From positions 54,011,676-54,075,675 of the forward strand of contig CM049316.1 of NCBI GenBank assembly GCA_026874595.1: a stretch of DNA of 64,000 nucleotides, read 5' to 3'. This document shows, piece by piece, positions 19,801 through 43,800 of the stretch. Source of the stretch: Sipunculus nudus. Its lineage: Eukaryota; Annelida; Sipuncula; Golfingiida; Sipunculidae. Position numbers and translations under genes: made by a program. The notes beneath the pieces are model-generated. The model had not been told where the DNA came from. It was given only the letters and a program-made list of their open reading frames with translations, and did no database searches. The first letter of the stretch is position 1; each line of letters opens with the position of its first letter.

Positions 19801-22800
19801 CTAATACTGTAAAATTCAGATTGAAACATATATTAGTGGGGATGTATTTTTATATTATTGTCAGATTACACTGGCTTAATCATCTTAAGATATATATTTA
19901 AGATATGATAATTCACTCTCCACCCTGTTGTTCTTTGATATGCACATTTTTTTAATATAAGTGGAATATTTTTAAAGTTATTTAACAGAGCCATGAATTT
20001 ATGTAACACAGCTTATGACTGTGACATAACTCATTTATAACATACCAACAGACAGGCACTCTTTCTGCTATATCCCATAATAGCAGAACCTACTGCTTGT
20101 CAGGACTAGGAAGTCTAATCTATTTCTTGTTTCCATGTATTTTCTATGTATGTTTCTATATCAATTGAAATATGTATTTAAACCTTCAGAATAGACAACC
20201 AGTATATTTATGTATGTATTTCATGCCATATGTGCCATGTATAAGATAAAAAGTATGAAAATCAATATCTTATTAGATGCAGGGAGTAACAAACTAAAGA
20301 TAATTACAATTAATTGTGACTGACATATGTAATATAGCTTCAATGAATGTAAGAGGTATGGGTTGTCATGGAAAAAGAAGAGAAATATTCTATTGGTTGA
20401 ATAGGAAACAATTTGATATCATCTCCTCCAAGAAACGCATAGTAGTACAGAAAATGAAATGAGAGGGAGATCATAGTGGGGGAACCAAATATTTTTTTGT
20501 CATGGAACTAATCAAGCAAAGGGAGTTAGTATACTTATTAAAAATAAAGCAGGAATCCATGTTAAAGATATACAGCGAGATAAATGTGGTAGATTTCTTA
20601 TTCTCAATATTATAGCAGGAATTCATAACATTAATCTAGTAAATGTATATGCTCCAAATAAGGATGAACCAGACTTTTTTTTAAATCTTATATCTATATT
20701 AAAAGATCTACATGTAGATAAATTAATAATTGTTGGTGATTTCAATGTGACTTTAAACCCTGAAATGGACAAAGAAGGTGGTAATAAATACACTCAGGAA
20801 AAATCTAGACAAATTATTTTACATTGGATGGAACTGTCACAGTTGACAGATGTTTGGAGGGCACAACACCCAGGAACCCTGAAGTACACATGGCATAGAT
20901 ACAACCCCCAACCTATATTTTGCCGTCTTGACTACTTTCTTATCAGTGATAGTCTTTGCAGGTACACAGTCACTACTAGATAGAAACTGGATATAAAACA
21001 GATCATGCACTTATTTTAATGAGTTTAATGTTTAGGAACATCCAAGAGGTCCGGGATATTGGAAATTTAATTGTTCATTACTTGAAGATGAAACATATAT
21101 TAAGCAGATTAAAGAATGTATAAGAAACACTGTAAAAGACAATAAAGAAGTTAATCCCTCACTTTTATGGGACACAATCAAGTGCCAAATTGGAGGTGAA
21201 AGCATAGCATTCTCAACGAAACAAAAAGAGAAGGTACACTAATAAACTAATAACATTAGAGAGAGAAATGTATAAGGCCCAGTGTCAATATGATAAAACT
21301 AAGAACTTTGAAGATAAATGTAAATGGGAGATTGCTGTGAACAATCATAAACTTTTAATTGAAAATGAGACAAAAGGAGCAGTAATCAGATGCAGATCCA
21401 GATGGTTTTCAGAAGGAGATAAACCTACTAAGTATTTTTTTCAAATTTGGAAAAAAGAAACTATGAACAAAAACAATCCTGAAATTAAAAGACAAAAATG
21501 GAAAAATGATTACTGACACAGAACAAATTTTGCAAGAACAATTAACATTTAATAAGAATTTGTATACATCTAATGAACTTAGAGATGATTACACAAACCA
21601 GTTTATTACAAAAGAGGAGTTAAATACACTTAGAGAGTAAGACGCACAAAATTGTGAAGCAGATTTTTCTCCATCTGAGCTATATAAAACTGTTAAATTT
21701 CTTAAAACAAATAAGACACCAGGGCCTGATGGATTTCCAGCTGAATTTTATCAGAAATTTTGGGATGATATTAAAGATTATTTTATTAATTCACTGAAAT
21801 ATTCATTTTCCAATAATATTTTACCACTTTCAATGCGACAAGGTATTATCTGTCTCATTCCCAAAAAAGGAAAATATTCTCTTCATTTGAAGAACTGGCG
21901 TCCTCTCTCTCTTTTAAACACGGACTATAAAATAATTGCTAAAACTTTAGCTAATAGACATAAGACAACCCTAGACTCTATTATTCATTCTGATCAGACT
22001 GGTTTCATGGAAAATAGGTATATTGGAGAAAATATTATAAAAATTACAGATATATTTGCATATTCATATAAACATAAAGTATAAAGTTACCTGGTATCAA
22101 TAGATTTTGAAAAAGCTTTTGATTTTTTAGAATGGACTCATATTCAGAATACTCTAAAAATGTTAAATTTTGGACCAAATTTTAGAAAATGGATTCACAT
22201 ACTTTACTCAGGTATTAACAGCTGTGTTATAAATAGGGGATGGGCTAATTCATACTTTTCTATAAATCGAGGTGTTAGGCAAGGCTGTCCATTGTCACCA
22301 TATCTGTTTATACTCGCTTCAGAAATACTAGCTGTTAAAATAAGGAATAAACCTAAAATTAAAGGTGTAAATATAGGAGGTACTGAACATAAATTAATTC
22401 AGTATGCAGATGACACAGCCGTTACCCTTACTGGAGGCACTAAATCTTTTAAAGAACTTCTAGGAACTTTTGACGAATTTAAAAAAAATATCGGGATTAA
22501 AAGTTAATGTAGAAAAAACTGTAGTTATTCCTATGACACCTTTTGCCAATGGAAAAGAAAACATAGAAAGACTAAGTTTAAAATGGAGCTCTGAACCAGT
22601 AAAAATATTGGGTATATCTATTTATCCAGACTGGAGAAAGATGAAAGATATCAACTATAAAGAAATACTGAGTAAAATAAAAACAATTATAAATATATGG
22701 TCAAATAGAGGTATGTCGCTTTCAGGAAAAATAAATATTATAAAAGCACATGTATTATCACAACTGATATATGCACTACAGGTATTACCCAATCCATCCC

Positions 22801-25800
22801 CAACTTATGTAAAAGATATTGAATCTTTACTTTGGAAATTCATATGGGACAAACAAGATAAGATTAAACGAACCACACTCATAGCACCTATTGAAAAAGG
22901 GGGACTAGACATGATACATTTAAATTCCAAAAATGATGCATTAAAAATTGCTTGGGTGAAGCGTTTATTTATCTGGCCCCTTAGACCGAGGCTGGAGACA
23001 GATAGTTGATATACAGTTTAAAGGAATGGGTTCTTATATATTTAAATGTAATCTTAGGTCATCTGACATAAAAAATCTTAATGATCATTTATATACCCCA
23101 TTCTGGAGAAAAGTTTTTGATGCATGTTGTAAATATAACTTTAAAAATGTGTACTCTCAAGAGGAAATCCTTAATCAGGAATTATTTTATAACTCCCACA
23201 TCAAAGTAGATCATAAAACTGTATATATCAAAGAAATGTACAATGCAGGTGTCACAAAAATAAATGATATCCTAAAAAATAAAAAACAATATACTTTTCT
23301 ATTACATGCAGAACTCATTAGTAGATATAAATTAAAAATAGGGCAAATGCAGTATATGAGTTTAATTGATGCTATTCCAGCATGTTGGAAAAAATAATAA
23401 AAGCATGCTCAGATAGTGATATACACATTAACAATCCATGTAAACCGAATATAGAAATTATAATGAATACTAAGAAAATCTCACAAAAAGTTTACAAAGA
23501 TTTAATAATGAACGTCTGCACAGAACCCTCCAAAGTAATTGATAAATGGAATAGAGACATGCAATGCGATTGCAAAGACCTGATATAATGAAGCCTTTAA
23601 CAATATAAAAAGCATAACAATATCAGAAATATTAAGAATATTTAAGTTTAAACTAATTCATAGAACCATAGCTCTAAACCCTCTGTTATTTACTATAGGG
23701 AAAGCAACCAGTCAACTTTGTTCACTTTGTAAAAAAGAGAAAGAAACTATTATGCATCTATTTTATAGCTGTAACGAAACACAAAACATTTTTACTCAAA
23801 TGAAAAACTGGCTGATTAGCCAAAAGATACTTCTTACAGAAAACTGCTTTAGCAAAACAACTATTATCTTCAACAATACAAATAATTCTCTGTTAGATAT
23901 ACTTATATTACTAGCTAAAAGATATATATATGTATGTAAATGCAAAAATATCATGCCAAACTTTATCAGTTATACACTATATATGGAACAGATATACGCC
24001 ATTGAAAGAAACATTGCCCACTGAAATGGAACTTTATCTGTACACTATAAGAAGTGGAGCTCACTTGTGTCTTAAAAATATTATTGTTTATACAATTTGA
24101 CATTGAGATATATCCATAGTTAAAATATAAGTTTTGTGTTTCTAGATACAGATATCGTTGTTGCTGAATATGCAAAGACTTTTGATTTTTTTTTCTGTGT
24201 ACTTAAGTATGCATTTGTCATTATAGTGTCAATATTTGATTTATACTCCCTGAAGAATATAAGCTAAAATTACCAGGTAAAACTATCATAGGCCATAATC
24301 AATCCTATACATAAAACTGTCTCTGAACTGTATAAGTATCGCCATACTGAATTTATCTCTGTGCATTGTCATTGTATCTGTTTTTGTGCAGTGTATTAGT
24401 ATGTGTATATATTGTTTTACATGTTCATTATTTGTACTGTCCATATGTTGTTACATGTGATGTATTCAAAAAGTAAAGGTAAAATGGTGAAATTATAAAC
24501 CCATATACATGCTCTACTATCATCACAAAATTAAAAAATAAATAAATATTCAATTGAATGGTAGCAACATTTAATATAATGTATCAATGTCATCGACGTC
24601 AGGAACACCAGTAATCATGGGCCTTGTGGTTTGGGGGGGGGGGGGGGGGGGCAGCATGTTCCCCTCCCTTTTTTAGGAAAATGGACAAAGTAAAACGGGG
24701 ACAAAGTTTCATGTGTCCCCTTCTGTTTTTAGGGGAATAAAACGCGTACTTTTGTACTTAACGATTTCGAGATCATATTTTCAGTTTCTTGTTTCTTAAT
24801 ATTTATTTAAATTTTCTTTCAATTGCGCATCTCATAACAAGAAATTAATGATATCGTGAATGTTCAACCAAATAATGAAAACTAAGCAAAAATAAGTTTT
24901 ATTCTCAAATTATACATACCGTATTATGTCTTGGAAAATGTTATTGAGAAAGTTTTTATATTCTGGCTGGTGGCTATACTGTCCTCATTATCATGAACGG
25001 GGCTTTTGCCCGAACTCGGTGGATTGCCCCCCCTCATATTTCCTGAAAAACAGGGCTTATGTGAGTATCGCTCAAACGCGCCCCATTGTCATCGGAGGCA
25101 TTTGTCTTGTTTAAGTCTTAAAATTCAAAATATAAAAGATATCGTGGCTATAGCTTTATTGCTAAACACTTGCAACAGATAATCTAAAAAGGTCAACTTT
25201 CGGCCAACACGCGATAATCTCCACGTCATGAACCCCGATGTGTGTCGCGGGTGTGTCGGTCAATTGGTTTGTTATTTTGGCTGCACGACACACTTCACGA
25301 CACGCTAAGCGACGCAAACCGACACAACCAAGTGTCGGTGTGTGTCGCCTGATTTCTGTGTCGGACTGCGTCGCGCTGTGTCGAGATGCGTGTCGGCCTT
25401 GGTGGGTTCACCCCTTAACACACATTTAAAGCGAAGGTATTAAAACCCTTTATTATTCCGTTAATAGTACAGCCCGGACCCATGGAAAATCACTTGGATG
25501 CATTTTTAGCCAAACTTTTCATCCCAAACTTTCCATCTTCCAGATAGTGCTTAAATGTCAATTGTGGAAGGAATTTAGGGATTTTAGGGCCCCAAGGTCA
25601 AAGGTCAAGGTCACAGGAGTGACTTTCCCCATAACTGTTTCAAGATGTTGCTACAAGTTGGACTGAAATATTGCTTACTAACTTGACTTAAATATGGCCC
25701 ACCACTTAAGTAACAACTCGATTGATTTTGGGGTCATGAAATCAGAGGTCAAGGTCACAGGACCTATTTCTGGAAAATGATTGCGGATGCATTTTAAGCC

Positions 25801-28800
25801 AAGCATTATATCTTCCACATGTGACCCTCTGCCTATAGGGGCAGATTCTGTTTAATTTTTGGTTCATAAGCTCAAAGGTCAAGGTCACAGGGCCCATCCA
25901 TTCACAAATTAGTTTGTTGATGATAACTCTAGTTTGGGTAGAAAGATTGGCTTCAAACTTGATCACAGGACCCACATTTGGAAAAAGCTCGAAAACATAT
26001 CATTTTAGACAAATTCAGCTGAGTGTTGGGACCCATGGACCCTTGTTATATCTCTAGATATTGTTACTATTATTAAATATATGTAAGAGCGGGGTTTGGT
26101 TGTGAGTAGGACATGAAGGATACTCCTTGGCGGTACATGAATATAAGAAACAAGCAAATAAAATTAAACTGCAAATAAATAAAGGGAAATTACCAGTACA
26201 CTTCGGTGACAGGACATGAGCATATATAAAAAAATTAATTATATAATAAGTTAGATATATTTTAACAAAATAAATCAAGATGAACAAAGATAATGTCAAA
26301 TTAACCGACAGAAGTGCGTTTCAAAATTACAAGCACAAGATTCAAAAGAAACAAAGCGGATATTTTGAAGTGAAATAAATCTGACGGAAGTGGTGTTTTT
26401 TATGTTTCGAGAATCACTGCCGGGCTTATATTTGTTACACGGTCATTCAAAAATACGTCATACTATGTAATTTTCGATTACACATGCAGGATCTCCAAGA
26501 CTACAAGGACACAGGAGTCTTACGGGGGAGTGAACATTAATATATCAAAAGCTGGAGCAATTCAGAGAAAACAATACATGCATCGTACGTATCAAATGTT
26601 TTTTAACAGTCAACACCTCTACGTCAAGGAAAATAAATGAGCAGTAAAAGCTGAAGATATTGTATTTGGACTACTTATCGAAAACCATCTAAATGTATTC
26701 CTCTTCAACAACCACTTGTACATGAAGGTCGGTGTTAAAAGGTGCCTTGTAAAGACAACAGTCCAAAGGCTATGTCAGTCTCTGTGGGTCGGGTATAACG
26801 CCGGGCAGAAAAGATAAATTGCAGGATGAAAGGATGTCTAGTCTGTTCACTAGCATACATTCAGCAATACAATATGTTCCTAGGCAACAATGACAAAGGA
26901 ATGAGACTTGGTCGAATAGGGGATATTCTCTGCCGAATCAGACACCGGTCACTGATTGTTGCTATGTCGAGGGAAAACATTTAAACATATGGTAATGAAG
27001 TCATGGATCAATTTATGTGCGCTCAGCTGCTGCCGCTGTTCGTTTGTTTGCATCCGCCACAGCGACAGGCCGCTTCTTCGGTTTTAGGCCATTGATAAGG
27101 TAAAACAACCGATCCTGAGACATTCTTTATCGCTATTCATGTTTTTTTTCTAGATTGCGATAAAACAGTCATCAGTCTGTAAAACAAATTTCTGAGTTAT
27201 TAGAATTGGACAAAAGCAGCACTTGCGCAATTTCATTAGAATGAGGTAATTATTAACAGAATATTACATCGATTGGTACATCATCATGTGTTTAATGGCG
27301 ATCCATTTTCACGGAAACGTGAGGCGACCTCCTACCTTGTTTCATATTCAGCTCGTGCATGTGACCACCATGTTTTTCTGGTGTCGTGTAAATTCATCAT
27401 TCAAAAAGCTCACTAACAAGTTATTTTAATCTCATTGAGACCGTTTTCCCCCTTAAAGTTCAACAATGAAAATAAAATGTCCTTTGTTGAATATTTATCC
27501 ACGCAAAAGTATCCATTATTTTAGATTTGTTATAATATAAACATATATTTATTTATTATATTTATTGCAGAATTCGTTTTATTCCAGTGAATTTCTCCTT
27601 TTCTTTAATTGTTTTTAATTCATTCATCATGTACACATTGTCACGAATTCTTTCAACGGTTTAAGTAGCGTGCATGTGCTGGTTTTGAGCGTGTATCACC
27701 TCTGACATTTATGATGATATTAATGATTTTCTTATCATGTTTATTGTGCCAGTAAAAAATTCTACTAATTACAAATTAACGAAAGACCTAATATCCGGAC
27801 TCAATCCTGTTATGTAGTGATCACTTTTTCACTTTTAATAAAATAGACATAATTAATAGTGAGCATACCAAATCAATACAACCTAAATTGGAAATTTCTT
27901 TGCGTTAGACGGCAAAAAACACGGATTTAATTGTTATTCCTTATCTTGCACAAGTTAACACAGCACTGTAATCTTGATTATGTGACTGTTATGTTCATAT
28001 ACGATGCTGGTGGTACCATCTATTTTGTTCCAATTTTTGGTAAACTCATATTGACGTTTCTTAAATTTTTGTTATGTCAGCTGTTGATGGGAATTTCCAC
28101 GCCCATGACCAGTACCCATTCACTCCGGAGTTGAGGAGACGTACTTTGTGATAAAGACTATGACCAGGAGTCTTAGTGCGGAAGACGATCTTCCGATTCT
28201 GACGGGAACATTACACCATCATGCTCCACGTATATATGTTATTAGTGTTCTACATCGAATCCTTTGGCCTTTGTTTTGATATATTACATAGTTGGTCATT
28301 TTTATTTTTTAGAATCGTGCGGACTATGACGTACATGTTGTTTCTGATCCATATTGAATCATGTGGGTATTTTGCGATGTCTGCCCTCGAAGGACTAAAG
28401 AAGAACGACTGGGTGTATGACGGCAGTGGAAACGCGTAAGTGTGTAACAATGTGACTCTGCCATGTACAATATTTTACGCACATTTATCGAGCCTATATT
28501 TAAACAATAAAACAGAATACAATGATATCGTTCTGTATCACGATTGATCTCAGACATTTGTGTCCTATCCATTCAAGATCATATTACGTTTCCAGTTTTT
28601 AAACAATTATGGAATTGTATATAATGCACACTATTACTATCATCATTGGTAAATATTGAACATTTCATTCTCACTACAATTCAATTTGAATGGACTCAAT
28701 ATGACATTTTTTGAAAGTAAAAGGAAAGTCAGCGATTATATAGATTTGAATGGTTTTTAAAATTCAGGTATATTCGGTGTATGTACCTTGCGACAAAGAC

Positions 28801-31800
28801 CGCCACCTCAATTGGTAACAACCCCCGTCCAACCAACCGTGACGAGTACATCTTCATGACGGCATACTGGCTGTCCGGGGTCTTTGTGTTCGCCCTTCTT
28901 ATTGGTCAGGTAGGAGGCTTACATTCACAAGGTGATATACTAACAAAGCCGGAATCATTTGATACAGAAACGCCCTACGTTATTCACTTTATCAACTACA
29001 ATGATCGTGGATTAGACCCTCTGTTGCCATTCATTAATTGAAAAACCATATCATTATATTTTTTACAAAGTTGTGTTTTTTTCTAAAGATGATTAATTAA
29101 CTCACACAGACACACATATATGTTGAACTGCACACTCAAATACACTCATTTAAAGGTTAAGAATATTTGGTGAAAGAATTAACTTTATGTGTATATCTGA
29201 AATACTACCGGCTCTTTGCCATCTGTGTATATTAATGTCAGGTGTTTAAGGCTCCAACGCAATCAGGATGCTTCATATTGTGGTTGTGTTTTTCAAATTG
29301 ATTTTATTTCAAACCCAGCTGAGTCTCTGAGTTTCTTTTACTGTTGGCCAGGGCAGACGCCCGGTAAACTCACATAATATTAAAAGTCCATTACTAGGCA
29401 CTTCAGGAAAATCGTATTCACAATTTGGTAACAAGGGTGTTTTCTGCTCTGTCTTTTTTTTTCATATGCCCGACTTTGATTGGACGTATCATGGCATACC
29501 CACGGTCCGTCCGTCGGGTCGTCTGTCCGTTGTCAGACCGTAAACGTTTAATGTCGGCGCGATAAATTACGAGCAATTTGATTGATTTTCACGAAACTAA
29601 CCACAACTTCTTATCAATAGATTACCTCGCCCGAGTTCGATTATAGGCAAAATCCACGCATATTTAATGAGATTAACGGGTCACCAAGTTACTTTGTGGT
29701 GTCGGCGTGTCGCTGCGATAACTTACCAGGAATATGATGGGTTTTCATGAAACTCAACAGAAATATTAACCAATATAATATCTCGCCTGATTTCGATTCC
29801 CAGTAAAATATATGCACTTTTAATGAAGTCAGAGGTCACGATACTTTATTATCTCATGACAACTTGCCAAAAATCTTACGGATTTTCATGAAACTTATAT
29901 CAACAGTAGAGTTTCTACGTTGTATTAAATTATCTGCAAACTTCACGCATATTTAATGAGGTCAGAGGTCAAAAGCAAAAAGACGGGCCTAATATGCACT
30001 CTTTGCGGTGCTCTTGTATTATCTGTTTTTATACCCCTGCTTAAATGTGATACATGACATCATATGTAGGTTGTAGAAACTTGTTCAAAATATATTCAAC
30101 ATAACTGATATATTTAGTATTTGTTAGCATTACATGTGCTACAGCTAAGTCTACAGTGAACCTTAGTGTTCACGTACGACCTCCTGAAATAAAATTCCTC
30201 TATAGTGACTAATGATGTTACAAACGTTTACTATTAACATGTTTTATTCGCTGCAGGGATGCTTTAAGACTACATTTATTTACTCACAGATCCGAGACAT
30301 AATAACATCTGCCAGTGTCGCCAAGACTCACTACCGTAAAACCATGGACCAGACGCTCCACTATATGCAGTCTCTAAATCTGCCGGCCGACCTTCAAAGC
30401 AGGGTCCGCATGTGGTTCAATTATAACTGGGAGCACCAGAAAACGTTAAGTGAGTATAGCAAGACCATCCACTTTACACGGTATCAGGGTTGTCACTGTC
30501 AGTGAGTATAGCAAGACCATCCACTTTACACGGTATCAGGGTTGTCACTGTCAGTGAGTACAGCAAGACCATCCACTTTACACGGTATCAGGGTTGTCAC
30601 TGTCAGTGAGTACAGCAAGACCATCCACTTTACACGGTATCAGGGTTGTCACTGTCAGTGAGTATAGCAAGACCATCCACTTTACAAGGTTTCAGGTTTG
30701 TCACTGTCAGTGAGTATAGCAAGACCATCCACTTTACACGGTTTCAGGTTTGTCACTGTCAGTGGGTATAGCAAGACCATCCACTTTACACGGTTTCAGG
30801 GTTGTCACTGTCAGTGAGTACAGCAAGACCATCCACTTTACACAGTTTCAGGGTTGTCACTGTCAGTGAGTACAGCAAGACCATCCATTTAAAACACGGT
30901 TTCAGGGTTGTCACTGTCAGTGAGTACAGCAAGACCATCCACTTAACACGGTTTCAAGGTTGTCACTGTCAGTGAGTACAACAAGACCATCCACTTAACA
31001 CGGTTTCAGGGTTGTCACTGTCAGTGAGTACAGCAAGACCATCCACTTTACACGGTATCAGGGTTGTCACTGTCAGTGAGTACAGCAAGACCATCCACTT
31101 TACACGGGTTCAGGGTTGTCACTGTCAGTGAGTACAGCAAGACCATCCACTTAACACGGTATCAGGGTTGTCACTGTCAGTGAGTACAGCAAAACCATCC
31201 ACTTTACACGGTTTCAGGGTTGTCACTGTCAGTGAGTACAGCAAGACCATCCACTTAACACGGTTTCAGGGTTGTCACTGTCAGTGAGTACAGCAAGACC
31301 ATCCACTTTACACGGTTTCAGGTTTGTCACTGTCAGTGAGTACAGCAAGACCATCCACTTTACACGGTATCAGGGTTGTCACTGTCAGTGAGTATAGCAA
31401 GACCATCCACTTTACAAGGTTTCAGGTTTGTCACTGTCAGTGAGTATAGCAAGACCATCCACTTTACACGGTTTCAGGTTTGTCACTGTCAGTGGGTATA
31501 GCAAGACCATCCACTTTACACGGTTTCAGGGTTGTCACTGTCAGTGAGTACAGCAAGACCATCCACTTTACACAGTTTCAGGGTTGTCACTGTCAGTGAG
31601 TACAGCAAGACCATCCATTTAAAACACGGTTTCAGGGTTGTCACTGTCAGTGAGTACAGCAAGACCATCCACTTAACACGGTTTCAAGGTTGTCACTGTC
31701 AGTGAGTACAACAAGACCATCCACTTAACACGGTTTCAGGGTTGTCACTGTCAGTGAGTACAGCAAGACCATCCACTTTACACGGTATCAGGGTTGTCAC

Positions 31801-34800
31801 TGTCAGTGAGTACAGCAAGACCATCCACTTTACACGGGTTCAGGGTTGTCACTGTCAGTGAGTACAGCAAGACCATCCACTTAACACGGTATCAGGGTTG
31901 TCACTGTCAGTGAGTACAGCAAAACCATCCACTTTACACGGTTTCAGGGTTGTCACTGTCAGTGAGTACAGCAAGACCATCCACTTAACACGGTTTCAGG
32001 GTTGTCACTGTCAGTCAGTACAGCAAGACCATCCACTTTACACGGTTTCAGGGTTGTCACTGTCAGTCAGTACAGCAAGACCATCCACTTTACACGGTTT
32101 CAGGGTTGTCACTGTCAGTCAGTACAGCAAGACCATCCACTTTACACGGTTTCAGGGTTGTCACTGTCAGTCAGTACAGCAAGACCATCCACTTTACACG
32201 GTATCAGGGTTGTCACTGTCAGTGAGTATAGCAAGACCATCCACTTTACATGGTATCAGGGTTGTCACTGTCAGTGAGTACAGCAAGACCATCCACTTTA
32301 CACGGTATCAGGGTTGTCACTGTCATTGAGTATAGCAAGACCATCCACTTTACATGGTTTCAGGTTTGTCACTGTCAGTGAGTAAAGCAAGACCATCCAC
32401 TTTACACGGTTTCAGGGTTGTCACTGTCAGTGGGTATAGCAAGACCATCCACTTTACACGGTTTCAGGTTTGTCACTGTCAGTGAGTACAGCAAGACCAT
32501 CAACTTTACACGGTTTCAGGTTTGACACTGTCAGTGAGTACAGCAAGACCATCCACTCTACACGGTTTCAGGGTTGTCACTGTCAGTGGGTATAGCAAGA
32601 CCATCCACTTTACACGGTTTCAGGTTTGTCACTGTCAGTGAGTACAGCAAGACCATCCGCTTTACACGGTTTCAGGGTTGTCACTGTCAGTGAGTACAGC
32701 AAGACCATCCACTTTACACGGTTTCAGGTTTGTCACTGTCAGTGAGTACAGCAAGACCATCCACTTTACATGGTTTCAGGGTTGTCACTGTCAGTGAGTA
32801 CAGCAAGACCATCCACTTTACACGGTTTCAGGTTTGTCACTGTCAGTGAGTAAAGCAAGACCATCCACTTTACACGGTTTAAGGGTTGTCACTGTCAGTG
32901 GGTATAGCAAGACCATCCACTTTACACGGTATCAGGTTTGTCACTGTCAGTGAGTATAGCAAGACCATCCACTTTACACGGTTTCAGGTTTGTCACTGTC
33001 AGTGGGTATAGCAAGACCATCCACTTTACACGGTTTCAGGGTTGTCACTGTCAGTGAGTACAGCAAGACCATCCACTTTACACAGTTTCAGGGTTGTCAC
33101 TGTCAGTGAGTATAGCAAGACCATCCATTTAAAACACGGTTTCAGGGTTGTCACTGTCAGTGAGTACAGCAAGACCATCCACTTAACATGGTTTCAGGGT
33201 TGTCACTGTCAGTGAGTACAGCAAGACCATCCACTTAACACAGTTTCAGGGTTGTCACTGTCAGTGAGTACAGCAAGACCATCCACTTTACACGGTATCA
33301 GGGTTGTCACTGTCAGTGAGTACAGCAAGACCATCCACTTTACACGGTTTCAGGGTTGTCACTGTCAGTGAGTACAGCAAGACCATCCACTTAACACGGT
33401 ATCAGGGTTGTCACTGTCAGTGAGTACAGCAAGACCATCCACTTTACACGGTTTCAGGGTTGTCACTGTCAGTGAGTACAGCAAGACCATCCACTTTACA
33501 CGGTTTCAGGGTTGTCACTGTCAGTGAGTATAGCAAGACCATCCACTTAACACGGTTTCAGGGTTGTCACTGTCAGTCAGTACAGCAAGACCATCCACTT
33601 TACACGGTTTCAGGGTTGTCACTGTCAGTCAGTACAGCAAGACCATCCACTTTACAAGGTTTCAGGGTTGTCACTGTCAGTCAGTACAGCAAGACCATCC
33701 ACTTTACACGGTATCAGGGTTGTCACTGTCAGTGAGTATAGCAAGACCATCCACTTTACACGGTATCAGGGTTGTCACTGTCAGTGAGTACAGCAAGACC
33801 ATCCACTTTACACGGTATCAGGGTTGTCACTGTCATTGAGTATAGCAAGACCATCCACTTAACATGGTTTCAGGTTTGTCACTGTCAGTGAGTAAAGCAA
33901 GACCATCCACTTTACACGGTTTCAGGGTTGTCACTGTCAGTGGGTATAGCAAGACCATCCACTTTACACGGTTTCAGGTTTGTCACTGTCAGTGAGTACA
34001 GCAAGACCATCCACTTTACATGGTTTCAGGGTTGTCACTGTCAGTGAGTACAGCAAGACCATCCACTTTACACGGTTTCAGGTTTGTCACTGTCAGTGAG
34101 TAAAGCAAGACCATCCACTTTACACGGTTTAAGGGTTGTCACTGTCAGTGGGTATAGCAAGACCATCCACTTTACACGGTTTCAGGTTTGTCACTGTCAG
34201 TGAGTACAGCAAGACCATCCACTTTACACGGTTTCAGGGTTGTCACTGTCAGTGAGTACAGCAAGACCTTCCACTTTACACAGTTTCAGGGTTGTCACTG
34301 TCAGTGGGTATAGCAAGACCATCCACTTTACACGGTATCAGGGTTGTCACTGTCAGTGAGTACAGCAAGACCTTCCACTTTACACAGTTTCAGGGTTGTC
34401 ACTGTCAGTGGGTATAGCAAGACCATCCACTTTACACGGTATCAGGGTTGTCACTGTCAGTGGGTATAGCAAGACCATCCACTTTACACGGTTTCAGGGT
34501 TGTCACTGTCAGTCAGTACAGCAAGACCATCCACTTTACACGGTATCAGGGTTGTCACTGTCAGTGAGTATAGCAAGACCATCCACTTTACATGGTATCA
34601 GGGTTGTCACTGTCAGTGAGTACAGCAAGACCATCCACTTTACACGGTATCAGGGTTGTCACTGTCATTGAGTATAGCAAGACCATCCACTTTACATGGT
34701 TTCAGGTTTGTCACTGTCAGTGAGTAAAGCAAGACCATCCACTTTACACGGTTTCAGGGTTGTCACTGTCAGTGGGTATAGCAAGACCATCCACTTTACA

Positions 34801-37800
34801 CGGTTTCAGGTTTGTCACTGTCAGTGAGTACAGCAAGACCATCAACTTTACACGGTTTCAGGTTTGACACTGTCAGTGAGTACAGCAAGACCATCCACTC
34901 TACACGGTTTCAGGGTTGTCACTGTCAGTGGGTATAGCAAGACCATCCACTTTACACGGTTTCAGGTTTGTCACTGTCAGTGAGTACAGCAAGACCATCC
35001 GCTTTACACGGTTTCAGGGTTGTCACTGTCAGTGAGTACAGCAAGACCATCCACTTTACACGGTTTCAGGTTTGTCACTGTCAGTGAGTACAGCAAGACC
35101 ATCCACTTTACATGGTTTCAGGGTTGTCACTGTCAGTGAGTACAGCAAGACCATCCACTTTACACGGTTTCAGGTTTGTCACTGTCAGTGAGTAAAGCAA
35201 GACCATCCACTTTACACGGTTTAAGGGTTGTCACTGTCAGTGGGTATAGCAAGACCATCCACTTTACACGGTATCAGGTTTGTCACTGTCAGTGAGTATA
35301 GCAAGACCATCCACTTTACACGGTTTCAGGTTTGTCACTGTCAGTGGGTATAGCAAGACCATCCACTTTACACGGTTTCAGGGTTGTCACTGTCAGTGAG
35401 TACAGCAAGACCATCCACTTTACACAGTTTCAGGGTTGTCACTGTCAGTGAGTATAGCAAGACCATCCATTTAAAACACGGTTTCAGGGTTGTCACTGTC
35501 AGTGAGTACAGCAAGACCATCCACTTAACATGGTTTCAGGGTTGTCACTGTCAGTGAGTACAGCAAGACCATCCACTTAACACAGTTTCAGGGTTGTCAC
35601 TGTCAGTGAGTACAGCAAGACCATCCACTTTACACGGTATCAGGGTTGTCACTGTCAGTGAGTACAGCAAGACCATCCACTTTACACGGTTTCAGGGTTG
35701 TCACTGTCAGTGAGTACAGCAAGACCATCCACTTAACACGGTATCAGGGTTGTCACTGTCAGTGAGTACAGCAAGACCATCCACTTTACACGGTTTCAGG
35801 GTTGTCACTGTCAGTGAGTACAGCAAGACCATCCACTTTACACGGTTTCAGGGTTGTCACTGTCAGTGAGTATAGCAAGACCATCCACTTAACACGGTTT
35901 CAGGGTTGTCACTGTCAGTCAGTACAGCAAGACCATCCACTTTACACGGTTTCAGGGTTGTCACTGTCAGTCAGTACAGCAAGACCATCCACTTTACAAG
36001 GTTTCAGGGTTGTCACTGTCAGTCAGTACAGCAAGACCATCCACTTTACACGGTATCAGGGTTGTCACTGTCAGTGAGTATAGCAAGACCATCCACTTTA
36101 CACGGTATCAGGGTTGTCACTGTCAGTGAGTACAGCAAGACCATCCACTTTACACGGTATCAGGGTTGTCACTGTCATTGAGTATAGCAAGACCATCCAC
36201 TTAACATGGTTTCAGGTTTGTCACTGTCAGTGAGTAAAGCAAGACCATCCACTTTACACGGTTTCAGGGTTGTCACTGTCAGTGGGTATAGCAAGACCAT
36301 CCACTTTACACGGTTTCAGGTTTGTCACTGTCAGTGAGTACAGCAAGACCATCCACTTTACATGGTTTCAGGGTTGTCATTGTCAGTGAGTACAGCAAGA
36401 CCATCCACTTTACACGGTTTCAGGTTTGTCACTGTCAGTGAGTAAAGCAAGACCATCCACTTTACACGGTTTAAGGGTTGTCACTGTCAGTGGGTATAGC
36501 AAGACCATCCACTTTACACGGTTTCAGGTTTGTCACTGTCAGTGAGTACAGCAAGACCATCCACTTTACACGGTTTCAGGGTTGTCACTGTCAGTGAGTA
36601 CAGCAAGACCTTCCACTTTACACAGTTTCAGGGTTGTCACTGTCAGTGGGTATAGCAAGACCATCCACTTTACACGGTATCAGGGTTGTCACTGTCAGTG
36701 GGTATAGCAAGACCATCCACTTTACACGGTTTCAGGTTTGTCACTGTCAGTGAGTACAGCAAGACCATCCACTTTACACGGTTTCAGGGTTGTCACTGTA
36801 AGTGAGTACAGCAAGACCATCCACTTTACACGGTTTCAGGGTTGTCACTGTCAGTGGGTATAGCAAGACCATCCACTTTACACGGTTTCAGGGTTGTCAT
36901 GTTCACTCTTCAGGGGCGGACTGACTTAAGAGACACCGGGAAGTTCCAGTATGACCGATAGTATAACCATTAATAACCTCGTTGGTTATATATTCTCTTT
37001 TTTCTCAGAGTGACCCATCCTAGAATACCTCAATGTTTCATTGGATGCGGATGTCAGTCTATCAATATGATTGCTCTTTGAGTGACCGCGCATAGAGCCC
37101 TCGTGTCAGGTAGGAACCACACGTTGACCATGCTGCGATCTCACAAGTGCGAGGCTGCAATCAGGTCGCTCTGCTCTCCGCGTGATACACGAATCTCTGT
37201 CAGGGCCTGTGATTGAAAAAAATCCCTGTTTATAACACAAACAGAGACGCATCTTAGTCTAGTAAAATCAACATATTTTTGTCCTTTGGTGATAGAGCAG
37301 GGTTTGCTGGTTTTTAGCTCAGCTGACTGAAAGTCATCTGAGCTATAGCGATCACTCTTTGTCCGTCGTCCGTCTGTCCGTCTGTCGGTCTGTCCGTCCG
37401 TTAACCAGGCACAAATCGTAACCGCTGAACCTAGAACCTTGTAACTTGGGATTCTGAGAGGTCCATGAAAAATCTCCTTGGAAACCAGAAATTAGGTCTC
37501 TGTTACCCATATCCTTTGAGCTATGGGGCCCCAAAGTACCCCCCAGAAAAGTCAAAAATTTCATACAAAAACTTCAATATCTCATTAACTACTTGACTGA
37601 TGGTCATGATTTTTGGCATACGTATTGATCATGAGATGTTCCATCACTTCTTGCAGACTGGTGGCGCCACCTGTATTTTTCGATTTTTTACAAATTTTTT
37701 TCTCTATTTTTGAGACCTTTAAAAATGTGAACATCTGTTAACAAGGCACAAATCGTAAAGCCTAGACCTAGAATCTTAATTCTTGATACACTGAGAGGTC

Positions 37801-40800
37801 CATGAAAAATCTCCTTGGAAACCAGAAATTAGGTCTCTGTTTCCCATATCCTTCGAGCTATGGGGCCCCAAAGTACCCCCAGAATAGTAAATTTCATACA
37901 AAAACTTCAATATCTCAATAACTACAACACTGATGGTCATGATTTTTGGCATACATATTGATCATGAGATGTTCCATAAGTTCCTGCAGACTGGTGGCGC
38001 CACCTGTATTTTTCGATTTTTTTACAATTTTTTCCTCTATTTTTGAGACGTTTTAAGATGCTGACATCTGTTAATGTGGCACAAATCGTAACCGCTGGAC
38101 CTAGAATCTTCTTTCTCGACACACTGAGAAACCTATTAAAAGTCTCCGTGGAAACCATAAATTAGATCTCTGTTACCCATATCCTTCGAGCTATGGGGCC
38201 CCAAAGTACCCCCCAGAAAAGTCAAAAATTTCATACAAAAACTTCAATATCTCATTAACTACTTGACTGATGGTCATGATTTTTGGCATACGTATTGATC
38301 ATGAGATGTTCCATCACTTCCTGCAGACTGGTGATGCCACCTGAATTTTTCGATTTTTTACGAATTTAAAAATGTGAACAGCTGTTAACAGGGCACAAAT
38401 CATAAAGACTGGACCTAGAATCTTCATTCTTGACACACTGAGAGGTCCATAAAAAGTCTGCATGGAAACCTGAAATAAGGTCTCTGTTACCCATATCCTT
38501 TGAGCTATGGGGGGCTCCCAATAACCCCCCAGAATAATGGAAAATTTGATAAAAACAAACTGCAACATCTCAATAACTACAACACTGATGGTCATGATTT
38601 TTGGCATACATATTGATCAAGAGGTGTTTCATCAGTACCTGCAGACTGGTGGTGCCACCTGTATTTTTTCAAAATTTCACAATTTTTTTTTTCTCTATTT
38701 TCGAGACCTTTCAGGATGTAGTTATCTGTCAACAGGGTACAAATCGTAAGGACTGGACCTAGAACCTTCATTGTTGACACACAGGGAGACCCATGATAAG
38801 TCTAATTGGACACCTGAAATTAGGTCTCTGTTACCCATATCCTTTGAGCTATGGCACTCCAAAGTACAGCTCAGAATAATGGAAAATTTGATACAAAAGC
38901 TGAAGTATCTGAACAACTAATGCAGAGATCACCATAATTGTTTTCATGGATATTGATCATGGAGTGTTTCATCAGTTTCTGCAGACTGGTGGCACCACCT
39001 GTATTTGTTCGGGTTTTTTTAACGATTTTTTTCTCTATTTTTGAGACCTTTAAAGTTATGAACATCTGTTAACAGGGCACAAATCATTAAAACTGGACCT
39101 AGAATCTTCATTCTTGACACACAGGGAGACCCATGAAAAGTCTCCATGGAAACCTGAAATTAGGTCTCTGTTACCCATATTCTTTAAGCTGTATGGCTCC
39201 AAATTACCCCCCAGAATAATGGAAAATTTGATACAAAAACTGCAGTATCTCAATAACTACAACACTGATGGTCATGATTTTCGGCATACATATTGATCAT
39301 GACCTGTTCCATCAGTTTCTGCAGACTGGGTGCGCCACCTCTATTTTTTTTCAAATTTTTACGATTTTTTTTCTCTTTTTTTGATACCTTTAAAGATGTG
39401 GTTATCTGTCAACAAGGTACAAATCGTAACAACTGGACCTAGAATCTTCATTCTTGTCATGCAAGAAGGCCCATGAAAAATGCCTGTGGAAACTTAAAAT
39501 TAGGTCTCTGTTACCCATATCCTTCAAGCTATAGGACTCCGAAGTATCCCTCAGAATAATGGACAATTTGATACAAAAGCTGAAGTATCTGAACAACTAA
39601 TGGGGAGATCACCATGATTCTTTGCATGGATATTGATGTTTGTAAGTGTTTTTTTTAGTTTCTGCAGACTGGTGGAGCCACCTGTACTTTTGTACCCGCC
39701 AAAACGAAGTTTTGTGGATACTATGTTTTTGACCGGGTTCCTGCGCCGTTGCCGCGTTCGTTTCAGAGAGCTCCTCTGAGACTTGATTTTATCAGCTTTC
39801 CAAGCTCATATCTCGGGAACCGTTTGACTGATCAGGAAATAAAATTTATACTAATGTAGCCCTTGGATAGCTCTATAACATACACAAAAAATGGTGGCGC
39901 CACCTGCAACCATTTTTGCACAGCGTCTGTCTGTGTGTCTGCCGTGCAATAATGTCACTCAAATCTCGGCAGTGGTTTGACATATCTGCCTAAAATTTTG
40001 CAGTTTTATACATCCTGGATAGCTTTCTTGATTTTATGACAGGTGGCACCACCTACATTCACGTTCACGCTGATGACATCCAAGCTCATATCTCGGGAAC
40101 CGTTTGACCGATCGGGCCAAAATTTTGCATGTATATAGATTTAACATAGCTCTTTATCATACGCTTAACTGGTGGCGCCACCTGCAACCATTTTTGCACA
40201 GCGTCTGTCTGTTTAGCTGCCGTGCAATAATGTCACTCATATCTCGGCAGTGGTTTGACATATCTGCCTAAAATTTTGCAGGTTTATACATCCTGGATAG
40301 CTTTCTTGATTTTATGACAGGTGGCGCCACCTACATTCTAGTTAACGCTGCACACATCCAAGCTAATATCTCAGGAACCATTTGACCGATTGGGCCAAAA
40401 TTGTGCTTGTGTTTAGATCTCACATAGGTCTTTATCATACACAAAACTGCAACCATTTTTGCACAGCGTCTGTCTGTTTGTCTGCCGTGGGCTAAAATCA
40501 CTCATATCCATGTAGTGGTTTGACTTTTCTGCCTAAAATTTTGCATATGTATACAACTTGGACAGCTTTCTGGATTTGTGGTTGGTTGCACAACCTACAT
40601 ACACATTTAGGCTGCAGACATCCATGCTAATATGCAACATACCTAACTCTGTTTCCCCTTGCCACTCAATCCATGCCTCACTTCACTCTGATTTTGGCAG
40701 ATACACGTAGTCACTTGTCGGCTACCCATATTCTAGTTTTTAAAGTTTACACATTTTTTCTCTATTTTTCAGATATATAAATACAGAATAAATCTTGGCC

Positions 40801-43800
40801 TGTTGGTTAATCTGTTTGATGCTTCAGTTGAATGGGTATCTACCATTCTGATGATAAAATTTCCTTTTGTGAATCTCTTCCCAGTCAGCTGAGCGTCATG
40901 ACCCATGGGTCACTTGTTAGAGAGTGTTTGGTATATTTGGTATATGATACTGGCCTCGGTGAAATGGGTGTATAGTCTATTATGCATACACATTTTGCAA
41001 CTAGATTAAAAAGGTTATATTCCCGTTTTAATTTCTGTATTACATAAGAGAACATGTGAATGTACTTAAAACTAATTTTGTAATGGTACCATGCTTTATC
41101 ACAATGTACTTATCATGAAAAATCGGTTCTTGAGTTAGCATCTAATTTTTTTTTATGAATTTCGCTCATACAAAGTATTCTACCAGAAGAGAAAGACCTT
41201 GTGTAATAAAAATTTCATTTATACTCATAACTGTTTTAAAAAGAGAAAAAGTCATCTTGTGTAATTCTAGTAAATTTAAATTGTGAAATGTATGTGCGAA
41301 GTTTCATTTTTCAAAGTAACTGTTACGGGCAACTTTCACTTCGATTTTCACGTTATTTTTACGCCCCGGTCCGCCCCTGTTATCCCTATAGAACTGTTTG
41401 TTATGATGGATGCCAGCTTTACTTGTTTCCAGATTATAAAATTAAATGGAGTATTTGATGAAACCTTTGTAGAAACTTAGGATTTAATCTGTTTTATGTG
41501 CCTATCATTTTATATCCATAATGGACCCACTAATTTTACTGATAGTGCATAGCACTAAAATAGGGCATAACAGATAAGGAAAAATAAAGTATTAGAAAGC
41601 TGCTAATTGAAAACCCTCTGATATTGTTCAGAACAAAACATATATAGCGATTAACTTATGTGAAGCCTATGTATGTGTGGTCAGCAATAGTCTTGTTAAT
41701 TTACAGACAATATTATAAAAAAATTATACACTTAATATCAAGAATATTTTATATAGGGAGGCCTGCTGTATAATTTAATAGATACCATGCATATACTGAT
41801 AACATACAAATAGAAATATTGATTTCGTAGGGGCATGTACTTGAGACCGTCTGACAAGTCTATCTTGATAACGCCAAATTTGGTCGTGTTGCATCATGTA
41901 TAACATACAGCAGTTATGTTTGTAAATTTAGGCACGGTTCTGGCACGAATGATTAATTTTAACAAGTCTGACAGGTAAATGATAACTTCACTGGAAAAAT
42001 TCACTGTCATGCCAACCCACCCGTCTCGACAGATTTTCAAGTTTCCCTCATACTATAAAATGTTCTCTGCCTCCATGAGTCCTCTACATTGACGCATCTC
42101 AACATATAATCCGTGAGTGCACCACTGTTTTTACATGTCCTTTTATATCTCTAAACTTCACAACAATTCTTCAAGAATATTTTATAAAGAATAAGTGTGA
42201 CTAAGAATTCAAAGCATATTAATATGCAGACTCCTACATTTGCATAGCTATGTCTAAAATGTATATTATTCACCTTTTTTATGGAGAAAATACCGTCAAG
42301 TATCCAGGTGTAGGTATATTTTGAGTTCAGTCAGTCATTGTGACGTCACCAAAACACTCAGCAATCATTACTCTTCATTGCAATTATTCTATCATTGATG
42401 TAAATAATTTTATGATATATAAATATAATACAGAGAAACTCGTCCATGCACAGTAACTGAAAGCCGGAGACTGTACGCAAAGAAATTTTATTCTTAACAT
42501 AGTTTCTATATACTGGCAATTGAAACAGAAATCTACATGAAATTGACACACTTTGGCACCCGACAGGTGCATGGAAGACAGCAGATGGCGTGATATAGTT
42601 CCAGGGAAAGATAAAGACTGTTTTAACTGGTAGTCTTTTCTACGGTTGCTGCTTTATATCTCGTGCTAAAAATACACATCGAATTTTTTTTTATTCTCAA
42701 CTCGTGATAAGTTTAACGCGGGAATACTTAACAATAATTACTTATTGGTTTCTGTCCATATTTCGTTCTTAACCGTTTGCTTACTGATTACAGAGATAGA
42801 CAAATATCTTGCTTCGAGCGCGATCAGTGGCGCAAAACATGAACATGGCCAGCTGGTAGCCGCCCTGTCCCGCCAAGATTATACAAGCTCACAATCAATG
42901 TTTCTTCTGTGTTTCTTCTTTTCTCTCCTTGTTTGGCTATTATCACACTTGCAAAAAACCATAACAACGTATAAAACAGGTGAATTTTAGATAATAAGCC
43001 CAACAACTTTCCTGGGAAACTTTAATATTCAGCCAAAATAAGCTATTAAAATGAGATAAAACAATAAAGAGGAGGCGTACTGAATGATGAAACTACGCTT
43101 GGCACTGGTTGTCCCTCTCAGTATGGAAATTTATTGACTTTTCCATTTCAGATGAGAACTCTTTGCTCGAGTCTCTGCCGAAGAAGATGAAAGCAGATCT
43201 AGCGATCAATGTTCATTTTCAGACTCTGTCTAAAGTTCGGCTGTTTGCGGTAAGTTTATATACCATGAAGCTTGTAATAGACTGGGTGGTGCTTAAGGAA
43301 GTTGTTATTCCTCACCAAATCGCGACGAATGCTTCGTTCGGTATTTTTGTTTTGTATGATATTCCTTAAAAAATACAGAGAGCTAAAAAACCTGCATTAA
43401 AATTAGTTATACGTGTATATGTGTATTTTTTAATGTGTCATTCATGGATAAATCGAAAGTCTGATGCATAAGTTACCATCTAGCAGTAAAGATCAGTTAT
43501 ACCATATAAAACTTTTCTGTACTAAAATGTATGCATAGTTTCGCCCGTTTTCCACGTGCTGTCAATCTTGTGTATACAACTGAAAATTAGGTATAAAAAC
43601 AAACTGTTCTTTTAAAGGTAAACAGGTTATACACGTATTACATTTCTTTGACACTTGATGCAAGTCAGCATGTTACAAATATTACTATTTTGCAGGATTG
43701 TGATAAAAACTTGTTATACGACTTGGTACTGAAGCTCAAACCTTGTCTTTATTTACCAGGAGATTATATCTGTAGAAAGGTAAGTCGTAAAAAATACATC

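What the first reader, a model, noticed from the sequence alone, without database searches (positions are those of the whole stretch)
30450..36899. An intron that begins as a 124-copy array of decoy splice donors
The authentic donor of the C-linker exon (TTAA|GTGAGTATAGC) is also the first base of a 52-bp satellite, and nearly every unit reads TCA|GTGAGTAYAGC. The intron thus offers about 100 further near-consensus donors identical to the real one over the intronic bases; they differ on the exon side (C instead of A at -2). Using the first decoy would add 52 nt and bring TGA into frame within about 20 codons, removing the rest of the C-linker and the nucleotide-binding domain. The array may have grown by copying the donor region, and could act as a U1 snRNP sink, slow splicing or control channel level. 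The sequence facts are direct; any function is inference.
Basis: partly seen in the sequence, partly recalled or inferred. Interest (0 to 1): 0.82.

Follow-up and report, generated by a model that had tools for sequence, protein, structure and literature searches.

The report
Splice-donor tandem array, mirage-like
An ion-channel gene has an intron that opens with about 124 copies of its own first 52 bases, so the start-of-intron signal is repeated down the intron; similar arrays seem to occur at other exon ends in the same genome and resemble the 'mirages' known in amphioxus, so it is probably a tolerated by-product of DNA duplication rather than a switch.

Summary
The array is real: 124 head-to-tail units at 30450-36899, starting within 1 nt of the donor of a CNG-channel C-linker exon (phase-1 intron 30450-43151). 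Use of any decoy puts a stop 18 codons on. U1 pairing of those 88 is within 0.5 kcal/mol of the authentic site; an additive donor score is about 2 bits lower. The unit was found nowhere else in the 1.43-Gb genome above chance, so the array grew locally. Donor bases are neither spared nor purged, against a maintained U1 sink. It is not alone: of 16 other arrays whose units carry CAGGTAAGT, about 10 (by eye) lie on apparent coding exon ends with the exon tail inside the unit; two (ABCC transporter, TXNDC5-like) are firmly homology-backed. This matches amphioxus 'mirages', reported not to disturb splicing, and the donor minisatellite of human IFI6. Best reading: a donor-side, mirage-like array, nearly neutral, first donor used. 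Left open: donors preferentially seed arrays in this genome; one comparison supports it, another (GTGAGT) does not. No RNA data were available.

The parts
30290..30449 (+). C-linker exon of a CNG-channel (beta-type) gene, ends ...TTAA
   Evidence: reading frame, acceptor TTTACTCACAG; 85 of 85 residues align to CNG beta-1, E 3.7e-19
30450..30455 (+). authentic splice donor GTGAGT (context TAA|GTGAGTAT)
   Evidence: U1 pairing -7.6 kcal/mol, recalled-matrix score 7.5; inferred from homology, no cDNA
30450..36899 (+). 52-bp tandem array, 124 units, first 6.45 kb of the intron
36802..36807 (+). the one decoy with the same exon-side TAA context as the authentic donor
30450..43151 (+). whole phase-1 intron, 12,702 bp, holding two further tandem arrays (340-bp and 278-bp periods)
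43152..43249 (+). next coding exon ([33 protein letters not shown]), acceptor TTTCCATTTCAG

Best explanation
The array is a donor-side, mirage-like minisatellite. The first ~52 bp of this intron, beginning at the exon border, was duplicated in tandem and then expanded and homogenised by unequal exchange or slippage to about 124 copies. Each event adds copies downstream of the first donor, so the exon and its donor stay intact and the expansion is nearly neutral. The spliceosome most likely keeps using the first donor, because that donor alone sits next to the exon body (exon definition over a 160-nt exon) and, unlike all but one of the copies, has A at -2. Extra U1 particles on the copies would be discarded during assembly. 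Shown: the array, its edge, its confinement to one locus within the limits of the searches, the nearly equal U1 pairing of most copies, and comparable arrays at other exon ends. Inferred: use of the first donor, near-neutrality, and the order of events.
For: Edge within 1 nt of the exon border and no similarity of the unit to the exon (15 of 52 identical). Unit 1 is identical to units 2, 64 and 109, so there is no decayed edge. A genome search finds 54 hits, 54 of them in this array. With up to 3 mismatches there are 141 genome hits; all 124 units match the pattern with 0 or 1 mismatch, leaving 17, against 21 for the backward control (only the first 100 places were listed, so that the 17 lie elsewhere is by subtraction). 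Exact internal duplications (35 units = 1,822 bp; 13 units = 678 bp) show growth by block copying. Other arrays carry exon tail plus donor in each unit: an ABCC exon (L068, PDB E 1.3e-9) and a TXNDC5-like exon (L077, PDB 1.6e-36). Mirages are reported as harmless to splicing.
Against: The exonic part of the unit is at most 1 nt here, whereas the ten arrays I class as exon ends carry 4-38 nt of exon; so a chance edge at the donor cannot be excluded. No orthologous intron from a relative was available to show the pre-array state. No transcript data. U1 pairing energies do not by themselves favour the first donor (-7.6 against -7.1 to -7.6). The genome search skips very common words and scores only the best candidates.
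Confidence: 0.7

Rival explanations
1. IFI6-like: some downstream units are really used as alternative donors, giving transcripts with an 18-codon tail and a stop (truncated channel or nonsense-mediated decay), so array length tunes channel output.
For: Human IFI6 uses two downstream repeat units of a donor minisatellite (PMC4526556, passage and reference title). Here 88 of 123 decoys keep GTGAGT and pair with U1 within 0.5 kcal/mol of the authentic site; all 123 lead to a stop at codon 18.
Against: The common decoy scores 2.2 bits lower for lack of A at -2 (recalled matrix). Mirages in amphioxus are reported not to disturb splicing. No excess conservation of donor bases.
Confidence: 0.15
2. 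Selected U1 platform: the array is kept because bound U1 delays splicing, holds the RNA in the nucleus, or suppresses premature polyadenylation in the long intron.
For: U1 is reported to act on splicing through deep intronic sequence, and its inhibition is associated with premature termination (PMC11289892, abstract and passages). The array has no AATAAA or ATTAAA, while the other 6.25 kb of the intron has ten.
Against: 35 of 124 donor cores are altered and donor columns are no more conserved than the rest. Arrays with GTGAGT in successive units are common in this genome without enrichment over the backward control (13,727 against 20,505 matches).
Confidence: 0.06
3. Chance abutment: an ordinary intronic minisatellite whose left edge happens to fall at the donor, with GTGAGT in the unit only because it starts there.
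For: Minisatellites are dense: 2 arrays of more than 10 copies in a 60-kb sample, one of 159 copies. Taking that as about 48,000 arrays and assuming 200,000 introns, about seven would start exactly at a donor by chance (rough inference from a very small sample). GTGAGT-bearing arrays show no excess.
Against: Arrays carrying the full donor 9-mer CAGGTAAGT are over-represented against one control word (18 against 4 over the same span) and about 10 of 16 lie on apparent exon ends. This rival differs from the best explanation only in the cause of the edge position, not in the mechanism of duplication.
Confidence: 0.2
4. The intron itself is young and was made by the tandem duplication, a part of a former exon array having become intronic (the intron-gain model proposed for mirages).
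For: The three CNG paralogues found in this genome are continuous across this position (L010, L011, L013). Intron gain from mirages has been proposed (PMC3087553, passages).
Against: The paralogues are only 33-38% identical and may simply differ in intron set. The exons join without gap against CNG beta-1, and the unit does not resemble the exon.
Confidence: 0.05

Closest known systems
Mirages: minisatellite-like tandem duplications of exon-intron boundaries in amphioxus (Adh3, globin BflGb6 and BflGb9, troponin C)
   Same: Tandem copies of a splice-site region inside an intron next to the authentic site; splice signals in many but not all units; internal homogenisation of units; authentic exon intact.
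   Different: Here at most 1 nt of exon is in the unit, there are 124 copies (the BflGb6 haplotypes have 6 and 3), and the genome is 1.43 Gb and looks molluscan (recalled repeat style; no tool named the taxon). Known from PMC3087553 (passages) and PMC3902484 (one passage); the original Adh paper was not held.
[quoted passage not shown] 1995)
   Same: Tandem repeat at an exon end with donor signals in its units (position at the exon end recalled).
   Different: Two downstream repeat units of IFI6 are used as donors (PMC4526556, passage); 12-bp unit and 26 copies are recalled. Here no use is shown and the unit is 52 bp. The 1995 paper was not held; only its title and a citing sentence were seen.
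Pseudo-5' splice site that traps U1 (ER-alpha exon 1 with HMGA1a)
   Same: Near-equal donor-like site close to an authentic one, competing for U1.
   Different: Single upstream site held by a protein; PMC6002489, abstract and passages.

Membership tests
Mirage (amphioxus-type exon-intron boundary minisatellite) | Tandem repeats next to the authentic boundary, inside the gene | tested here: met
   Array 30449-36899, authentic exon 30290-30449
Mirage (amphioxus-type exon-intron boundary minisatellite) | Units span the boundary (exon part plus intron part) | tested here: inconclusive
   Only one exonic base (A at -1) can belong to the unit; 15 of 52 identity to the exon. Met clearly by L068 and L077
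Mirage (amphioxus-type exon-intron boundary minisatellite) | Splice signals present in many but not all units | tested here: met
   89 of 124 units with GTGAGT
Mirage (amphioxus-type exon-intron boundary minisatellite) | Regular splicing undisturbed | not testable with these tools
   no RNA data
Mirage (amphioxus-type exon-intron boundary minisatellite) | Length polymorphism or somatic instability | not testable with these tools
   one assembly only; an exact 1,822-bp internal duplication suggests recent turnover
IFI6-type donor minisatellite | Downstream repeat units used as donors in mRNA | not testable with these tools
   no RNA data
Dispersed satellite or transposon-borne repeat | Copies elsewhere in the genome | tested here: not met
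   54 of 54 hits in this array; 141 hits at up to 3 mismatches, of which the 124 units account for 124, leaving 17 against a control of 21. The search skips very common words
Known structured RNA | Rfam match in 28000-46000 | tested here: not met
   0 matches at gathering threshold

The most novel reading that the evidence does not exclude
In this animal's genome, working splice donors are preferred birthplaces of minisatellites: DNA at exon ends duplicates in tandem more often than matched sequence (through U1- or transcription-linked R-loops, for example), giving a genome-wide class of introns that open with arrays of competing donors. In some of them (ABCC unit of 42 nt, TXNDC5-like unit of 48 nt, the L070 gene with 42 nt) the first units are in frame and open, so alternative donors could add tandem peptide repeats.
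Probability: 0.25. Interest if true: 0.8.

Novelty: new variant of a known kind. Interest (0 to 1): 0.55.

Why it matters
In the papers seen here, mirages are described from a handful of amphioxus genes. A genome with many such arrays, some of 40 to 124 copies, would be a natural experiment on a long-standing question: how the spliceosome picks one 5' splice site when dozens of near-identical ones follow at fixed spacing. It also gives a testable route by which introns lengthen, alternative donors arise and perhaps introns are gained.

Tried and rejected
RNA masking of decoys: a quasi-palindrome (TCACTGTCAGTGA) at unit junctions lets neighbouring units pair. For segments from -60 or -100 to +15 or +25, median opening cost is 6-7 kcal/mol for the 88 GTGAGT decoys against 1.5-1.8 for the authentic donor (0 to 6 of 88 decoys as open as it). 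With -40..+11, however, 34 of 88 are as open; by sliding windows the authentic site ranks 45th, 1st or 29th of 124 depending on window. Shuffled units are as masked or more in 85% of cases, though one single-decoy shuffle gave 4.6%. Not claimed.

Selection on donors: donor columns have 3 minor alleles in 6 columns against 18 in 42 other columns; no signal either way.

Ratchet or recursive splicing: 30 of 124 units have CAG|GT; judged by eye to lack a good pyrimidine tract and not pursued.

Global U1 sink: rejected on abundance grounds (recalled) and 42 scored U1 gene copies; the U1 5' end ATACTTACCTG is present in the 4 of 42 copies read.

Viral-collection scan for part of the unit: 0 matches. 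Rfam over 28000-46000: 0. GTGAGT triples: no enrichment over the backward control, a result against a general donor bias; the CAGGTAAGT excess rests on one control 9-mer. Of five GTGAGT arrays read, the left edge was visible in three (L022, L027, L047) and none was shown to be coding. A replication with AAGGTAAGT did not complete, nor its control.

Exon calling: the codon model is weak. It passes 5 of 16 arrays at p<0.05 and 3 of 18 single sites. Of my ten by-eye exon ends it passes four (L068, L076, L080, L081), gives 0.056-0.072 for three (L067, L070, L078) and fails three (L074, L075, L077); it picked a wrong frame for the TXNDC5-like and PH-like exons, and it passes L071, which I class as unclear. 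The by-eye count was not blinded. Pfam on ten exon peptides: Thioredoxin above its cut-off (L077), three relevant hits below cut-off (L068, L080, L067), an irrelevant weak hit for L078, none for L066, L070, L074, L075 and L081. PDB searches with the L076 and L080 exons found nothing. Pfam found nothing for ten more peptides, eight from single sites plus L076 and L064.
Full report
Observation. The window holds a 52-bp tandem array at 30449-36899. Cut at a conserved anchor it has 124 units; of 123 steps 119 are 52 nt and 4 are 54 nt, and the last unit is truncated. The exon before it, 30290-30449, and the next, from 43152, join in frame as ...[17 protein letters not shown]... and align without gap to CNG beta-1 over 85 of 85 residues (E 3.7e-19). 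A hand-joined fragment of seven exons matches the ion-transport and cyclic-nucleotide-binding Pfam models. The donor TAA|GTGAGTAT at 30450 is therefore well supported by homology, though not by RNA. The intron is phase 1 and 12,702 bp long.

Decoys. Of 124 units, 89 begin GTGAGT, 20 GTGGGT, 11 GTCAGT and 4 TTGAGT. Among the 123 decoys 78 match GTGAGTAYAGC and 15 the authentic GTGAGTATAGC exactly. Pairing with the U1 5' end is -7.6 kcal/mol for the authentic site, -7.1 to -7.6 for GTGAGT decoys, -6.8 for GTGGGT and -2.9 for GTCAGT. The U1 5' end used was recalled, and was then found in the four of 42 U1 gene copies that I read. With donor frequencies from memory the authentic site scores 7.5 and the common decoy 5.3; the difference is C for A at -2. 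Six other donors placed in the gene score 6.0 to 12.4. All 123 decoys lead to a stop after 18 codons.

Origin. The unit shares 15 of 52 bases with the exon, so the duplicated segment lies in the intron, with at most the last exon base. Unit 1 is identical to units 2, 64 and 109, and a block of 35 units (1,822 bp) is duplicated exactly, as is one of 13 units. In the 1.43-Gb genome the dimer search finds the unit only here: 54 of 54 hits. At up to three mismatches there are 141 hits; all 124 units match with 0 or 1 mismatch, leaving 17 against 21 for the backward pattern (the list shows only the first 100 places, so the 17 are by subtraction). A dispersed satellite is thus not met, within the limits of a search that skips very common words. 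Copy number in the assembly may be off, as for any array of this kind.

Selection. Columns 1-6 of the unit have 35 minor cells of 744 and three minor alleles; the other 42 columns counted have 156 of 5,202 and 18 (the four columns at the indel were left out). Donors are neither kept nor purged more than the rest. That speaks against a maintained function of the copies and against strong harm.

Is it unique? Arrays whose successive units contain GTGAGT are common in this genome, with no excess over the backward control (13,727 against 20,505 matches). A 60-kb sample (six 10-kb stretches at positions I chose) had four minisatellites of three or more copies, two of them with more than ten. For the full donor 9-mer CAGGTAAGT in three successive units there were 329 matches against 132 for the backward word. 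Over the span that both lists cover (C1 to C7:75.04 Mb) I counted 18 distinct arrays against 4; with single-word totals of 15,332 and 12,946 the binomial p is 0.007. This is one control word, and the arrays were counted by hand from the lists.

What those arrays are. I read 17 of the 18 arrays (the one at C7:75.04 Mb was not fetched). One of the 17 (L079) does not include the left edge, leaving 16. In about 10 of 16 the array begins inside what reads to me as a coding exon, and each unit holds the exon tail, the donor and the intron start: L067, L068, L070, L074, L075, L076, L077, L078, L080, L081. L066 is possible; L062, L064, L071, L072 and L073 are unclear or non-coding. Homology by tool: L068 to ABCC2/MRP1, the match running to the last residue before the donor (PDB E 1.3e-9; Pfam ABC_membrane 3.4e-5, below cut-off); L077 to TXNDC5 (PDB 1.6e-36; Pfam Thioredoxin above cut-off); L080 to a permease family and L067 to PH, both below Pfam's cut-off (1.4e-4 and 0.018). 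So two are firm and two weak; the other six rest on open frames and acceptor-like sequence read by eye. Likenesses of L076 to DNA-PKcs and of L078 to ABHD proteins are recalled; a PDB search for L076 found nothing and Pfam gave nothing relevant for L078.

Base rate. I took the first 18 CAGGTAAGT sites of C1. Three of 18 pass a weak codon test at p<0.05, against five of 16 arrays; array scores are higher (Mann-Whitney p 0.001 on rounded scores). The test passes only four of my ten by-eye exon ends, and passes L071, which I had left out. With 10 of 16 by eye against 3 to 6 of 18 the Fisher p would be 0.008 to 0.09. Three of the 18 sites (L092-L094, one strand, 16.5 kb) share an exon-tail sequence and seem to be another such array, so they are not independent singles. 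The by-eye classification was not blind.

In-frame cases. In L068 (42-nt unit) the frame stays open for 125 codons into the array (VSRRTIVILYFFIQ repeated); L070 (42 nt) and L077 (48 nt) are open in the exon's frame over the 40 codons looked at; L067 and L081 stop at once, and L074, L075 and L078 within 16 codons. L076 and L080 were not looked at. Alternative donors in the open cases could add peptide repeats; none is shown.

What is known. Tandem duplications of exon-intron boundaries were described in amphioxus as 'mirages': Adh3 units of 10-72 bp, globin BflGb6 with 6 and 3 units in two haplotypes, regular splicing not disturbed, somatic instability at Adh3, and a proposed role in intron gain (PMC3087553, passages; PMC3902484, one passage). 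The human IFI6 minisatellite provides several donors, two downstream units being used (PMC4526556, passage). The two original papers were not held. So the kind is known. The window's array is a donor-side variant with almost no exon in the unit, many more copies, and apparently a different kind of animal. Ten full-text searches were made; in their listings I saw no report of such arrays in molluscs or genome-wide, but only (0 papers) asked for bivalves and for molluscs.

How it most likely works. Tandem copies added after the first donor leave exon and donor intact, so growth is nearly free. Exon definition across the 160-nt exon and the better -2 base favour the first donor; surplus U1 is expected to leave during spliceosome assembly (title of Hodson et al. 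2012, seen in reference lists only; the paper was not held). RNA masking of decoys by pairing between neighbouring units was tested and depends on the folding window, so it is not part of the claim.

Verdict. The origin by donor copying is likely. A U1 sink or regulator is not supported. The array appears to be one of a recurring class in this genome; whether donors seed arrays preferentially is open (probability about 0.25) and testable with an annotated genome and cDNA.

Noticed in passing
37400-39599 and 39799-40633: Two more tandem arrays (340-bp period x 6.6, 278-bp x 3.0) in the same intron; with the 52-bp array about 9.5 of 12.7 kb of this intron is tandem repeat.
   Followed up: no
1917-2367: 28-bp minisatellite, 15.9 copies.
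   Followed up: no
20477-24024: Broken LINE-like reverse-transcriptase frames upstream of the channel exons (ORF list; family recalled).
   Followed up: no
L068 1466-3093: ABCC-transporter exon followed by about 40 copies (to the end of the locus) of a 42-bp unit of exon tail plus donor, in frame and open for 125 codons.
   Followed up: partly
L077 (minus strand): TXNDC5-like exon end amplified in a 48-bp unit that is open in the exon's frame over the 40 codons read.
   Followed up: partly
L092-L094 (G000 C1:1777139-1793640, minus): Exon tail like SNDYIPISYEQMY plus donor recurs 9 and 16 kb downstream of itself; looks like a very long donor array (CACUL1 likeness recalled; Pfam no hit).
   Followed up: partly
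G000 C6 50.26-50.37 Mb and 88.24-88.30 Mb: The 42 scored U1 snRNA matches all lie on C6 in two regions, mostly about 2.8-2.9 kb apart.
   Followed up: no
L010 and L011 (G000 C10): Two CNG alpha-like matches about 14 kb apart in long single open frames of 530 and 494 aa.
   Followed up: no
30450-36899: Exact 35-unit (1,822 bp) and 13-unit (678 bp) internal duplications; at an offset of 45 units, 41 of 79 unit pairs are identical.
   Followed up: partly
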